Part shown: in pieces, positions 16,111 to 44,826 of the stretch
Layout: every line of letters begins with the position of its first letter
How positions within the stretch are numbered: the first letter of the stretch is position 1
Assembly (NCBI GenBank): GCA_035556555.1
Contig: DATMES010000036.1
Coordinates: 1-52,426 of the forward strand
DNA length: 52,426 nt
Source of the DNA: Frankiaceae bacterium
GTDB lineage: Bacteria; Actinomycetota; Actinomycetes; BP-191
Reading direction: 5' to 3'
Program-made: the position numbers and the translations under genes
Notes under the pieces: model-generated
Databases searched by the model: none
The model's input: only the letters and a program-made list of their open reading frames with translations
Told to the model about the DNA's origin: nothing

Positions 16111-16371
16111 GTGCCCAAGTCGAGGGTCCGTAAGAAGAAGACGGACACCTACGTCCGCGACGCCACGATCGCCGCGCCGAAGAAGAAGCAGCCGTCGCCG
16201 GCCTGGTACGGCGCGCTGGTGCTCGGCACGATGGTGGTCGGCGTCGCGTGGCTGGTGACGTACTACGTGAGCGGCGGAACGCTGCCCGTGGACGACCTCA
16301 AGGCGTGGAACGTCCTCGTCGGCTTCGCCTGGATCGCGACCGGCTTCGCGCTGTCGACGCAGTGGCGCTGA
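16111..16371 (+). CDS. crgA: CrgA: cell division membrane protein
   Basis: An 86-residue protein starting at GTG 16111 after GAGGAG. A basic cytoplasmic N-terminus (PKSRVRKKK) precedes two membrane helices, at about 32-52 and 66-84, joined by a short loop with LPVDDLKAWNVL. This is the CrgA architecture. CrgA coordinates FtsZ and PBPs at the septum in Streptomyces and mycobacteria. It sits in its conserved place next to the DUF881 gene and close to the kinase operon. A cluster of DnaA-box-like sequences lies directly downstream. Confidence 0.94.
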   Translation: MPKSRVRKKKTDTYVRDATIAAPKKKQPSPAWYGALVLGTMVVGVAWLVTYYVSGGTLPVDDLKAWNVLVGFAWIATGFALSTQWR

Positions 16372-16405
16372 CGGCGTACCACCGCCGTAGTTCCATGCGT
16401 GTCAT

Positions 16406-16437
16406 TCGTCCACACGAGTTGTCCACACTGTGGACGA
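16406..16437. promoter_or_regulatory. Cluster of three DnaA-box-like sites before fmdB
   Basis: Three 9-mers close to the actinobacterial box TTGTCCACA lie within 32 bases: TCGTCCACA (16406-16414), a perfect TTGTCCACA (16419-16427), and the inverted TGTGGACGA (16429-16437). The last two form the 15-base palindrome GTCCACA-C-TGTGGAC. The cluster sits between crgA and the fmdB-like gene, ending 7 bases before its ATG, so DnaA binding would cover its translation start region or promoter. The arrangement resembles the paired boxes at 44277-44297. Confidence 0.65.
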
Positions 16438-16444
16438 CGGCCTG

Positions 16445-16687
16445 ATGCCGATCTACGAGTACGTCTGCACGTCGTGCGCGGCGGTCGAGGAGCACCTGCT
16501 CTCTCTCGGGGCTGACGGGCCGTCGGAGTGCGCGGCGTGCGGGGAGCCGTTGCGGCGGAAGTTCTCCCGCGTGGCCGTGAAGTACGAGGGCTGGGGCTTC
16601 TCCGCGACCGACAACCTCGTCGGCGACACCCGCGGCAAGGACTACAAGGCGCTCCGCGAACGCGCCGAACGCATCTCCGACGAGTAG
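16445..16687 (+). CDS. FmdB-family zinc-ribbon protein
   Basis: An 80-residue protein beginning MPIYEYVCTSC, the hallmark of the FmdB/CxxC_CxxC_SSSS regulatory family. Two CxxC pairs (C8/C11 and C29/C32) form the zinc ribbon. The usual serine-rich tail is replaced by a charged segment ending RERAERISDE. Family members are often called putative regulators, but none is well characterised. An in-frame ATG at 16430 adds five residues, but the family start is at 16445. DnaA-box-like sequences occupy the region just upstream. Confidence 0.9.
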   Translation: MPIYEYVCTSCAAVEEHLLSLGADGPSECAACGEPLRRKFSRVAVKYEGWGFSATDNLVGDTRGKDYKALRERAERISDE

Positions 16688-41403: not shown

Positions 41404-42519
41404 TCAGCCGGAGAGGCGGATCGGCATGAGGAGGTACCGGTAGTCCTCGGCGCCCTTGCCGGTGATGACCGCGGGCTTGACCGGGCCGTTGAACGACAGC
41501 TCGGCGTCGTCGGTGCCGATCGCCGCGAGCCCGTCGAGGAGGTACGTCGGGTTGAACGCGATCGTCATCGGCTCGCCCTCGTACTGCGCCTCGATCGCCT
41601 CCGACGCCTGCGCCTCGTCGCCCGTGCCGGCGTCGAGCACCAGCTCGCCGGCGTCGAACGACAGCCGGATCGGCGTGTTGCGGGCCGCGACGAGAGCCAC
41701 GCGCTTGACCGCGTCCATGAGCGTCGTGGTGTTGACCGACGCGACGGAGGCGAAGTCGGCGGGGATGAGCGCGCGGTAGGCCGGGAAGTCGCCTTCGAGC
41801 AGCCGCGTGGTGGTGCGCCGGGTGCCGCCCGCGAAGCCGGCCATGCCCTCGCCCTGCGCGCCGTTGCCGAGCGCGACCCCGACCTCGGCGCCGGTGCTGG
41901 CGAGCGTCTTGGCGGCGTCGGCGAGCGTCCGCGCGGGGATCAGCGCGGTGGACGTCGCGCCGTCGCCGTCGGGGCGCCACTTGAGCTCGCGGACGGCGAG
42001 GCGGTAGCGGTCGGTCGCCGCGAGCGTGAGCGAGTCGCCGTCGATCTCGACCTTGACGCCGGTGAGCATCGGCAACGTGTCGTCCTTGCCGGCGGCGACG
42101 AACACCTGGCCGACGGCGGCCGCGAACGCGTCGGACGCGATGGTGCCCGCGGCCGGCGGCATGTCGGGCAGCGACGGGTAGTCCTCGACCGGCATGGTCG
42201 GCAGGGTGAACCGCGCCGAGCCGCACGTGAGGACGGCGCGGTTGCCGTCGGTCGTGAGCTGCACCGGCGCGACGGGGAGCTTCTGCGCGATCTCGGCGAG
42301 CAGGCGGCCGAGGACGACGACGGTGCCGGCCTCCTCCGCCTGGACCTCCAAGGTCGCCTGCGCGGAGACCTCGTAGTCGAAGCCGGACAGCGTCAGCTCG
42401 TGGCCCTTGACCTCGAGGCGCAGGCCGGAGAGCACGGGCACGGCGGGGCGCGCCGGGAGGGACCTGGCGGTCCAGGCCACGGCGTCCGCGAACTCGTCGC
42501 GTTCGACTCGGAACTTCAC
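41404..42519 (-). CDS. dnaN: DNA polymerase III beta subunit (sliding clamp)
   Basis: A 371-residue protein of three topologically similar domains, starting MKFRVERDEFADAVAWTARSL and ending AEDYRYLLMPIRLSG. The hydrophobic pocket that binds client peptides is indicated by the conserved C-terminal Y-LMP-RL. The clamp encircles DNA and tethers the polymerase. It lies downstream of dnaA in the standard order and starts the leftward dnaN-orf-gnd-recF-dciA transcript. Confidence 0.97.
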   Translation of the reverse strand: MKFRVERDEFADAVAWTARSLPARPAVPVLSGLRLEVKGHELTLSGFDYEVSAQATLEVQAEEAGTVVVLGRLLAEIAQKLPVAPVQLTTDGNRAVLTCGSARFTLPTMPVEDYPSLPDMPPAAGTIASDAFAAAVGQVFVAAGKDDTLPMLTGVKVEIDGDSLTLAATDRYRLAVRELKWRPDGDGATSTALIPARTLADAAKTLASTGAEVGVALGNGAQGEGMAGFAGGTRRTTTRLLEGDFPAYRALIPADFASVASVNTTTLMDAVKRVALVAARNTPIRLSFDAGELVLDAGTGDEAQASEAIEAQYEGEPMTIAFNPTYLLDGLAAIGTDDAELSFNGPVKPAVITGKGAEDYRYLLMPIRLSG

Positions 42520-42784
42520 TGCTACCGCCCTCTTCCGGCCTGTGGGATGTGTGCCTGTTCTTGTCTTGTGTAGTTCATAGGAGAGACAACTACGTCTCCA
42601 TAGGCGGCGCCAACCTGGGGACGACGCGCATCGTCGCAGGTCAGGCCGGGAAAGTTGTCCTTCGCTCCCTGGGGAGAACGGCTGTGGAGTACACAGGGGG
42701 CGTCGTTCGTCCCCGGCTGTCCCCAGGCGATCACGGGTGACGGGTCAGCCGTCCACATGCTTTTCCCCAGGGTGTGCAGCGCCG
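42520..42784. other. dnaA-dnaN intergenic region
   Basis: 265 bases with no gene. Positions 42553-42605 are notably poorer in G and C than the surroundings (TTCTTGTCTTGTGTAGTTCA and following), so this could be an easily melted segment or the dnaN promoter region. Only weak DnaA-box-like 9-mers are visible: TGTGGAGTA (42683-42691) and CCGTCCACA (42749-42757), each with two mismatches. In many actinobacteria the origin is here, but the better boxes lie on the other side of dnaA. Confidence 0.5.
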
Positions 42785-44194
42785 TCACGACTGCCGGGCC
42801 CGGACCTTGATGCGGTTCGTCAGCTCGGAGACCTGGTTGTAGATGGCGCGGCGTTCGGCCATGAGCGAGCGGATCTTGCGGTCGGCGTGCATGACGGTCG
42901 TGTGGTCGCGGCCGCCGAACGCCTGCCCGATCTTCGGCAGCGACAGGTCGGTGAGCTCGCGGCACAGGTACATGGCGATCTGCCGCGCCGTGACGAGGAC
43001 GCGGGACCTGGACGAGCCGCAGAGGTCCTCCATGGACAGGCCGAAGTACGCCGCCGTCGCCGCCATGATCGTCGCCGCGGTGATCTCGGGGCCGCCGTGG
43101 TCGGGGATGAGGTCCTTGAGCACGACCTCGGCGAGCGCGAGGTCGACGCCCTGCCTGTTGAGGCTGGCGAACGCGGTCACGCGGATGAGCGCGCCCTCGA
43201 GCTCGCGGATGTTCGACTGGATCTTGGAGGCGATGTACTCGAGGACCTCAGGCGGGGCGTTCAGCCGCTCGGCGGCCGCCTTCTTGCGGAGGATCGCGAT
43301 GCGCGTCTCCAGCTCGGGCGGCTGGACATCGGTGATGAGGCCCCACTCGAACCGGTTGCGCAGCCGGTCCTCCAGCGTGGACAGCTGCTTCGGCGGCCGG
43401 TCCGAGGAGATGACGATCTGCTTGTTCGCGTTGTGGAGCGTGTTGAACGTGTGGAAGAACTCCTCCTGCGTCCGCTCCTTGTTCTCCAGGAACTGGATGT
43501 CGTCGACGAGCAGCACGTCGACGTCGCGGTAGCGCCGCTGGAACGCGCCGGCCTTGTCGTCGCGGATGGAGTTGATGAAGTCGTTCGTGAACTCCTCGCT
43601 GCTCACGTAGCGCACGCGGGCGGCGGTGGAGAGGTTCAGCGCGTAGTGGCCGATGGCGTGCAGCAGGTGCGTCTTGCCGAGGCCGGACTCGCCGTAGATG
43701 AACAGCGGGTTGTACGCCTTCGCGGGCGCCTCGGCGACGGCGACCGCGGCGGCGTGCGCGAAGCGGTTGGACGAGCCGATGACGAACGTCTCGAACGAGT
43801 ACTTGGGGTTCAGCCGCGCGGGCTCGGTCGGGCCGCGCCCGGGCGTCTCACGTCCCGTACCGGGCGAGACGAGCGCTTCGGGGGCAGGGCCGGTCGGCTC
43901 CGGCACCTGCTCGGGCGCCTGCGCCTCCTCGGGAAGCGGCTCGACGGTGACCGCGACGCGGATCTGCCGGCCGAGCTGCCCCGACAGCGCCTCGGCGATG
44001 AGCGGCCGGTACCGCGTGTCGAGCAGGTCCTTGGTGAACTCGTTCGGCGCGGCGAGCAGCGCCGTGTCCTCGACGAGGCCGAGCGGGCGGGTCAGCTGGA
44101 TCCACGCCTTGTTCTGCGGCGTGAGGGCTCCATCGGCAAGCGACTCCACCGAACGTTGCCACACAGCGACCAGATCGAGGGTGTCCTCGGGCAC
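42785..44194 (-). CDS. dnaA: Chromosomal replication initiator DnaA
   Basis: A 469-residue AAA+ protein starting at 44194 ([20 protein letters not shown]). Domain I is residues 1-85, with a short acidic/proline linker (domain II, about 85-130). Domain III has Walker [10 protein letters not shown], Walker [11 protein letters not shown], and sensor 2. Domain IV has the DNA-binding signature [15 protein letters not shown]. It binds 9-mer boxes, melts the origin and recruits DnaB. The linker is much shorter than in Streptomyces DnaA. Boxes upstream suggest autoregulation. Confidence 0.98.
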
Positions 44195-44227
44195 GCGCGT
44201 CCCCTGCTTCTTCAGGTCTCGCTTGGC

Positions 44228-44257
44228 GGGTGCGACGGGCGTCGCACCCTTTGTCTA
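44228..44257 (-). promoter_or_regulatory. dnaA: Candidate dnaA -10 and leader hairpin
   Basis: On the minus strand TAGACA (44252-44257) is a candidate -10. Directly downstream lies a perfect 9-bp stem, GGGTGCGAC with its complement around a 4-base loop (44228-44249), which would form at the very 5' end of the dnaA mRNA, about 34 bases before the start codon. The -35 region would overlap the DnaA box at 44277-44285, offering autorepression. In plus orientation the stem is followed by TTTGTCT and could act as a terminator. Confidence 0.5.
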
Positions 44258-44595
44258 GGGCCACTGGTCCGTACGTTCGTCCACACCTCTGTCCACAAGC
44301 TGTGCACGGTGTGCGGAGCCGCCGGGGTGCGTACCGACCCATATCGGGACGTATCCGGGCGTCGTACGGGCGCTCCGTTGTCCACAACGAGTCACGAAGT
44401 GGTAACGGAACCGCGACACGGAGGGGAACCGTGCCGGGCGGGACGCTTCGTCCGGTAGTGGACGAGGCTGGGGAAGCCGGCGCCGAGGGACCATAACGCG
44501 GCGCCGACGCTGTGGACAAGGTGTTCTCCACAGGTCTGACCGATCGGCCGATGGGTCTATCCTGCGGGTCGCGCGGCGTGTCCCCAGGGCTGTGT

Positions 44596-44624
44596 TTGAC
44601 CCTCCGGGCGCCGCTGCGTACTGT
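44596..44624 (+). promoter_or_regulatory. rpmH: rpmH promoter
   Basis: TTGACC (44596-44601) and TACTGT (44619-44624) are separated by 17 bases, close to the sigma-A/HrdB consensus. The predicted start of transcription lies near 44631, leaving a leader of about 58 bases. It drives rpmH-rnpA-yidD-yidC and probably on to jag, rsmG and parAB. Confidence 0.7.
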
Positions 44625-44688
44625 TGTGCCCCTCTGTGCACGCGCCGGTCACGTCCGGTGCGCCTTTTACTGTCGTGGAGCCGATCCC

Positions 44689-44826
44689 GTGAGCAAGCGC
44701 ACGTTCCAGCCGAACAACCGCCGCCGCGCCAAGACGCACGGCTTCCGGCTGCGCATGCGCACCCGGGCCGGCCGCGCCATCCTCGCCGCGCGCCGCGCCA
44801 AGGGCCGCCGCGAGCTCTCGGCTTAG
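44689..44826 (+). CDS. rpmH: Ribosomal protein L34
   Basis: A 45-residue, strongly basic protein starting at GTG 44689: [20 protein letters not shown] then [20 protein letters not shown]. This is the full L34 motif. It binds 23S rRNA in the large subunit. GGAG lies 10 bases before the start. It is the first gene right of the origin and ends 6 bases before rnpA. Confidence 0.98.

What the first reader, a model, noticed from the sequence alone, without database searches (positions are those of the whole stretch)
16406..16437. Compact DnaA-box cluster 28 kb from the origin, in front of an fmdB-like gene
Seen: three box-like 9-mers in 32 bases, one perfect and two with one mismatch, two of them forming a 15-base palindrome, ending 7 bases before the ATG of the zinc-ribbon gene. 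The pattern TTCGTCCACAC...TGTCCACA also occurs at the origin (44276-44297). Inference: this may be a DnaA titration or ATP-hydrolysis locus (datA/DARS-like in logic) or DnaA control of the FmdB-like gene next to crgA, linking initiation to division.
Basis: partly seen in the sequence, partly recalled or inferred. Interest (0 to 1): 0.7.

Follow-up and report, generated by a model that had tools for sequence, protein, structure and literature searches.

The report
Conserved DnaA-binding site beside crgA
A short stretch of DNA next to a cell-division gene carries three docking sites for the protein that starts chromosome copying; it is the local version of a site already shown to bind that protein in mycobacteria, and it turns out to be conserved across most of the actinobacteria sampled, which points to a shared way of tuning the cell cycle.

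Summary
The three boxes are real (16406-16414 +, 16419-16427 +, 16429-16437 -); 0 of 400 shuffles of the window put three in 32 bp. They form the right half of a ~62-bp element (16386-16447) whose left half is an imperfect inverted repeat. The element belongs to the 3' side of crgA, not to the fmdB-like gene. A profile finds it in 72 of 90 crgA 3' flanks from 33 families (58 of 76 non-seeds) and in 0 of 90 upstream flanks, 0 of 90 reversed flanks and 0 of 24 other loci. The next gene is convergent in 59 of the 90, so a promoter role is not general. In mycobacterium-like loci the repeat ends 66 bp before the next gene; Hicks et al. 2020 put the palindrome of the Rv0010c-Rv0011c (crgA) DnaA site 65 bp before Rv0010c. 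That region binds DnaA in vitro, and its M. smegmatis homologue in vivo. So this is a new member of a known kind of site; its class-wide conservation appears unreported. Most likely it tunes DnaA (titration, datA- or DARS-like); which is untested. DnaA control of fmdB is not supported.

The parts
16386..16447 (+). whole conserved crgA-3' element (profile match, positions 1-62 of 64)
   Evidence: 50 bits; profile built from 24 crgA 3' flanks, the window being one of the 24
16387..16405 (+). left half: imperfect inverted repeat GTAGTTCCA-N4-TGTCAT (core TTCCATGCGTGTCA 16391-16404); cleaner as TTACAC/GTGTAA or ATCACAC/GTGTGAT in other families
16406..16414 (+). DnaA box 1, TCGTCCACA, one mismatch
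16419..16427 (+). DnaA box 2, TTGTCCACA, perfect; the middle box, which lies in the opposite orientation in congener G001 and in several families
16429..16437 (-). DnaA box 3, TCGTCCACA, one mismatch; at fixed distance from box 1 across families
16111..16371 (+). crgA, cell division protein CrgA (86 aa); the element follows its stop codon
   Evidence: Pfam PF06781, 97.6 bits
16445..16687 (+). FmdB-like zinc ribbon gene (80 aa from the ATG); neighbour, not a constant partner of the element
   Evidence: Pfam PF09723 and TIGR02605; orthologues start at the same residue
15268..16023 (-). DUF881 protein gene, divergent from crgA
44277..44532 (.). five boxes at <=1 mismatch in the dnaA-rpmH spacer (dnaA 42785-44194 -)
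   Evidence: gene names from reading the translations

Best explanation
The element is a chromosomal DnaA-binding locus, the positional homologue of the Rv0010c-Rv0011c DnaA site of mycobacteria. Shown here: three DnaA boxes in fixed register with an inverted repeat, directly behind crgA, conserved across most families of the class sampled, in either orientation, and mostly between convergent gene ends. Shown by others in M. tuberculosis and M. smegmatis: DnaA binds the site. Inferred for this genome: DnaA binds the boxes cooperatively; because the locus is about 28 kb from the origin it is duplicated soon after initiation, and the doubled site then withdraws DnaA or changes its nucleotide state, restraining the next initiation and tying initiation to division timing. 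DnaA binding I put at about 0.9; action on DnaA rather than on a neighbouring gene at about 0.6.
For: Boxes beyond chance. 84 of 90 crgA 3' flanks (300 bp) carry at least one box at <=1 mismatch to TTRTCCACA, 70 of 90 at least two, 33 of 90 at least three; shuffled flanks 114, 5 and 0 of 1800; flanks upstream of crgA 7, 1 and 0 of 90; other loci 25, 1 and 0 of 229 windows. 28 of 33 families have a member with two or more. Profile: 72 of 90, controls 0 of 90, 0 of 90, 0 of 24. 97 of 128 genomes have a profile match; the crgA place was known for 60 of the 97, and the best match lies 0-400 bp behind crgA in 54 of the 60 (47 same strand, 7 opposite). In L176, L151, L111 and L116 the palindrome AATCACAYGCGTGTGATT ends exactly 66 bp before the ATG of the PH-type gene, against 65 bp in Hicks et al.. 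Rv0011c is crgA. The middle box is free in orientation while the outer two are fixed, as expected of separate protein sites.
Against: No DnaA binding was measured for this genome. The window's own inverted repeat is degenerate, and two of its three boxes are imperfect. 18 of 90 flanks have no profile match at E <= 0.01, among them all 10 sampled from family f16; those ten keep one to three boxes each, without the repeat. Six of 60 best matches are not 0-400 bp behind crgA: one overlaps its end by 3 bp, five lie 1.6 kb or more away. The left half recurs at nrdR/nrdJ loci, so part of the conservation may be owed to another protein. A role on DnaA activity rests on mycobacterial data and analogy.
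Confidence: 0.65

Rival explanations
1. Operator of the FmdB-like gene: DnaA (or another factor) bound over the 5' end represses or activates fmdB, linking initiation to that gene.
For: The boxes end 7 bases before the ATG. In all 5 of the 90 loci where fmdB was the first neighbour found, the element is present.
Against: The element is found behind crgA with a convergent rhomboid gene (35 of 48), a convergent thiolase gene (11 of 11) and a codirectional PH gene (14 of 14). In M. tuberculosis neither neighbour's expression changes in dnaA mutants.
Confidence: 0.1
2. The inverted repeat is the main conserved site and binds a protein other than DnaA; the boxes are secondary or serve the same partner.
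For: The repeat is conserved in fixed register with the boxes. It recurs behind NrdR-box-like sequences at nrdR/nrdJ loci (25 of 26 non-crgA pattern hits show a nrd sign). HigA2 binds the M. tuberculosis palindrome in vitro at 8 uM (PMC11205783).
Against: All 10 f16 loci keep boxes but match no profile. The M. tuberculosis fragment binds DnaA in vitro, and Hicks et al. read the palindrome itself as two DnaA-like boxes.
Confidence: 0.18
3. A structured RNA: 3' untranslated region, terminator or leader hairpin built on the box palindrome.
For: Boxes 2 and 3 can pair in RNA; the element is transcribed with crgA if transcription runs through (inference from the sequence).
Against: RNAalifold on 24 sequences predicts no pair at all. 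The palindrome lies between boxes 2 and 3 in some species and 1 and 2 in others. 7 of 54 elements are inverted relative to crgA. No Rfam match there in the window or in the nine crgA loci scanned.
Confidence: 0.03
4. Chance cluster of DnaA-like words in a GC-rich genome.
For: Single words at one mismatch are common: 168 in the genome against 162 for the reversed word.
Against: 0 of 400 shuffles give three in 32 bp, and the arrangement is conserved over many families.
Confidence: 0.01

Closest known systems
M. tuberculosis / M. smegmatis DnaA site in the Rv0010c-Rv0011c intergenic region (Hicks et al. 2020, PMC7738170)
   Same: Directly behind crgA (Rv0011c); palindrome plus DnaA-like boxes; spacing to the next gene of 66 bp in mycobacterium-like loci here against 65 bp reported; near the origin.
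   Different: In the window the next gene is fmdB-like, not the PH gene; the repeat is degenerate; the box words are TTGTCCACA-like. Hicks et al. saw no obvious correspondence in other species; the class-wide set found here is one.
E. coli datA
   Same: DnaA-box cluster outside oriC; a second site type lies beside the boxes.
   Different: datA works with IHF and promotes hydrolysis of DnaA-bound ATP; no IHF site and no such activity is shown here; sequence and neighbours are unrelated (comparison from abstracts and recall, not aligned).
E. coli DARS1/DARS2
   Same: Few DnaA boxes in set orientation outside the origin (recalled).
   Different: Nucleotide exchange not shown; box layout not compared position by position.
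S. coelicolor DnaA-box cluster near oriC (Smulczyk-Krawczyszyn et al. 2006)
   Same: Actinobacterial box cluster near oriC said by reviews to restrain untimely initiation (passages in PMC4585315 and PMC5742627).
   Different: Original paper not held; whether that cluster is the crgA one is unknown to me.

Membership tests
crgA-3' DnaA site (Rv0010c-Rv0011c type) | Lies between crgA and the next gene | tested here: met
   crgA 16111-16371, element 16386-16447
crgA-3' DnaA site (Rv0010c-Rv0011c type) | Cluster of DnaA-like boxes including a palindrome | tested here: met
crgA-3' DnaA site (Rv0010c-Rv0011c type) | Sequence alignable in fixed register with mycobacterium-like loci | tested here: met
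crgA-3' DnaA site (Rv0010c-Rv0011c type) | Binds DnaA | not testable with these tools
   shown for M. tuberculosis and M. smegmatis only
datA | Box cluster outside oriC on the origin side | tested here: met
   about 28 kb from the dnaA-rpmH spacer
datA | Binding site for IHF or an equivalent protein needed for function | not testable with these tools
   an inverted repeat is present, its protein unknown
datA | Promotes hydrolysis of DnaA-ATP | not testable with these tools
   needs biochemistry
DARS | Promotes release of ADP from DnaA | not testable with these tools
   needs biochemistry
DnaA-controlled promoter of fmdB | Boxes travel with the fmdB gene | tested here: not met
   67 of the 72 elements are where fmdB was not the first neighbour found
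Structured RNA / Rfam family | Conserved base pairing or Rfam match | tested here: not met

The most novel reading that the evidence does not exclude
A class-wide actinobacterial control locus for DnaA: a bipartite site behind crgA made of a DnaA-box triplet plus a site for an unknown partner protein, the partner also acting at ribonucleotide reductase (nrdR/nrdJ) operators, so that one device couples initiation, nucleotide supply and division; it would be the actinobacterial counterpart of datA/DARS with a different partner.
Probability: 0.25. Interest if true: 0.85.

Novelty: new member of a known kind. Interest (0 to 1): 0.6.

Why it matters
How actinobacteria limit initiation is poorly known. 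Hicks et al. found this site in mycobacteria, tied it to cell length and drug susceptibility, and could not link it to other bacteria. Showing that the same architecture sits behind crgA across the class turns a mycobacterial oddity into a general element with a defined core (repeat, box 1, free middle box, box 3) that can be deleted in harmless laboratory strains. It also suggests a partner protein, with nrdR/nrdJ operators as a second place to look for it.

Tried and rejected
Promoter of fmdB: rejected as the general role after the next-gene survey. RNA element: no consensus structure, no Rfam match. A competence-type operator (direct repeat TCCACAG-N-CGTCCACAG, starts 21 bp apart) found in the own genome was considered as the family of this site and rejected: the spacing here is 13 bp and the arrangement palindromic. 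MtrA as binder of the repeat: passages of PMC6265350 describe a direct-repeat motif, which does not fit an inverted repeat; not tested further. Naming mycobacterial and Streptomyces relatives through genome contigs: the one scan returned five loci, three of them Frankiaceae/Frankiales MAGs already seen as G handles. Literature search for the S. coelicolor cluster led only to reviews; one search was useless because 'datA' matches 'data'. The claim that class-wide conservation is unreported rests on searches (the last, DnaA + crgA + DnaA-binding site, found 0 papers) in an open-licence library only.

Rows dropped and limits: of 256 genomes, 249 have crgA; only part of the places were listed (I did not count them exactly, about 155); I analysed 90 loci (30 given automatically, 60 picked over families). 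For 6 of the 60 picks (G108, G119, G129, G252, G023, G053) I already knew the motif was there. Loci fetched because of the motif (L056-L085, L176-L195) were left out of the counts, but some served as profile seeds. In one search, 37 of 97 genomes could not be judged because I had no crgA place for them in the list I used. The window, G001 and G002 are not among the 90.

Full report
What is there. The window is a 52,426-base contig (C36) of a 3.98 Mb genome. Close relatives with names are Frankiaceae/Frankiales MAGs. The gene order, by my reading of the translations with Pfam support for DUF881, CrgA and the zinc ribbon, is DUF881 gene (-), crgA (+, 16111-16371), the cluster, an 80-aa FmdB-like gene (+, 16445-16687), a thiolase gene (-), later gyrA/gyrB, dnaN (41404-42519 -), dnaA (42785-44194 -) and rpmH. 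The three DnaA boxes stand exactly as described. None of 400 dinucleotide shuffles of the window holds three such boxes in 32 bp.

It is larger than three boxes and belongs to crgA. Both congeners (G001, G002) and three genomes of family f13 with crgA-fmdB keep the element, with a conserved left part, GTAGTYMCA-N4-TGTSATTYRYCCMCA. A scan of 393 genomes of the class for that 28-mer with two mismatches hit 71 genomes; the reversed control pattern hit none in the genomes listed. Frankia-like genomes of family f17 (name inferred) have the same triplet behind crgA without fmdB. I therefore collected crgA 3' flanks: 90 loci from 33 families. Within 300 bp of the stop, 84 of 90 have at least one box at one mismatch or fewer, 70 at least two, 33 at least three. 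Dinucleotide shuffles of the same flanks give 114, 5 and 0 of 1800, and flanks upstream of crgA 7, 1 and 0 of 90. In 229 windows of 300 bp from 24 other loci the figures are 25, 1 and 0. 28 of the 33 families have a member with two or more boxes; f3, f37 and f43 (one locus each) have none, f27 and f32 one.

Architecture. A profile of 24 sequences aligns over 64 bases with 12 invariant columns: an inverted repeat (such as TTACAC or ATCACAC, a few bases, GTGTRA), box 1 pointing right at once after it, a middle box, and box 3 pointing left. The middle box points right in the window, G002 and families such as f9, f17 and f28, and left in G001, f4, f36 and f38, while the outer boxes keep their places. 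The profile finds 72 of 90 flanks at E <= 0.01; 14 of these were seeds, so 58 of 76 are independent. Upstream flanks 0 of 90, reversed flanks 0 of 90, other loci 0 of 24. The 18 misses include all 10 sampled f16 loci, which still carry one to three boxes each without the repeat. Over 128 whole genomes the profile matches 97. Of the 60 whose crgA place I had, 54 have the best match 0-400 bp behind crgA, 47 on the same strand and 7 on the other; one overlaps the end of crgA by 3 bp and five lie 1.6 kb or more away.

It is not a promoter feature in general, nor an RNA. Of the 90 loci the nearest neighbour found by tblastn was a convergent rhomboid gene in 48 (element in 35), a convergent thiolase gene in 11 (11), a codirectional PH gene in 14 (14), fmdB in 5 (5), none recognised in 12 (7). 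The names rhomboid, thiolase and PH are my reading of the translations. RNAalifold predicts no pair on the 24 sequences, and Rfam has no match there.

The known counterpart. Hicks et al. 2020 (PMC7738170; I read the abstract, section 9 and found passages) mapped DnaA in M. tuberculosis by pull-down sequencing: five regions, among them Rv0010c-Rv0011c, confirmed by gel shift, and homologues of the same five by ChIP-seq in M. smegmatis. They describe a palindrome 65 bp upstream of Rv0010c made of two DnaA-like sequences, recurrently mutated in clinical strains. Reconstructed variants gave longer cells and altered isoniazid susceptibility. [quoted passage not shown] Rv0011c is crgA (PMC3989709, one passage). 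In loci L176, L151, L111 and L116 the palindrome AATCACAYGCGTGTGATT ends 66 bp before the PH gene's ATG in all four, which agrees with the published place. The order crgA, PH gene, convergent cyclophilin seen in L176 resembles Rv0011c-Rv0010c-Rv0009 (the last gene recalled, not from a call). A second paper (PMC11205783, found passages) reports that HigA2 binds the same place in vitro. The window element aligns in register with such loci, so I take it as the positional homologue.

Mechanism. Shown: sequence, place, conservation. Shown elsewhere: DnaA binding in two mycobacteria. Inferred: that DnaA binds here and that the site acts on DnaA. Reviews say that S. coelicolor and B. subtilis have box clusters that restrain untimely initiation (found passages in PMC4585315 and PMC5742627). 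A titration or datA-like role is therefore the best fit, with a DARS-like role open. The repeat may be a partner's site, as datA works with IHF (abstract of PMC13036160 in the listing). In 25 of 26 non-crgA loci with the 28-mer a nrd sign (NrdR-box-like sequence, NrdR start or NrdJ motif) is present; the exception is L177. In the own genome the second copy lies upstream of a gene I read as nrdJ (L195).

Verdict. Observation confirmed; DnaA part of the interpretation supported; control of fmdB not supported. New member of a known kind of site, with a class-wide conservation that my searches of an open-licence library did not find reported.

Noticed in passing
own genome loci L032, L033, L034, L038, L040, L041, L044, L045, L046 (and L036 with one base more): A separate recurrent motif, direct repeat TCCACAG-N-RTCCACA with starts 21 bp apart (9 of 22 hits of TCCACAN{0,30}TCCACA span exactly 27 bases), near competence-like genes: a ComF-like phosphoribosyltransferase (L041), UPF0102/YraN plus ComM-type Mg-chelatase (L044), a ParA/CpaE-like ATPase (L038), rpsF-ssb (L036). 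Candidate competence-regulon operator that a DnaA-box search would misread.
   Followed up: partly
L056-L061, L063, L067, L068, L076, L081-L083, L184-L195: The left half of the element (inverted repeat plus TCCACA) recurs at nrdR/nrdJ loci after an NrdR-box-like sequence; 25 of 26 non-crgA loci examined show a nrd sign, L177 does not.
   Followed up: partly
L002 / G001:C66:85446-85495: In a congener the middle DnaA box points the other way while box 1 and box 3 keep their places.
   Followed up: yes
window 42520-42784 and 44195-44690: The dnaA-dnaN spacer has only boxes with two mismatches, while the dnaA-rpmH spacer has five with one or none; which one is oriC in this lineage is open.
   Followed up: no
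G044:C1:10712, G026:C1:1314458, G061:C1:236104 (family f25): In three small genomes the best profile match lies about 9-41 kb from crgA (G044 across the contig ends, if circular), and the crgA flank of G044 (L172) has no box; the element may have moved.
   Followed up: no
G000:C2:182014-182065 (L049): The genome's other FmdB-family gene has two TCGTCCACA boxes at and behind its 3' end; several relatives show the same word behind that gene.
   Followed up: no
window 16430-16687: An in-frame GTG at 16430 inside box 3 could also start the FmdB-like gene; orthologues favour the ATG at 16445.
   Followed up: partly
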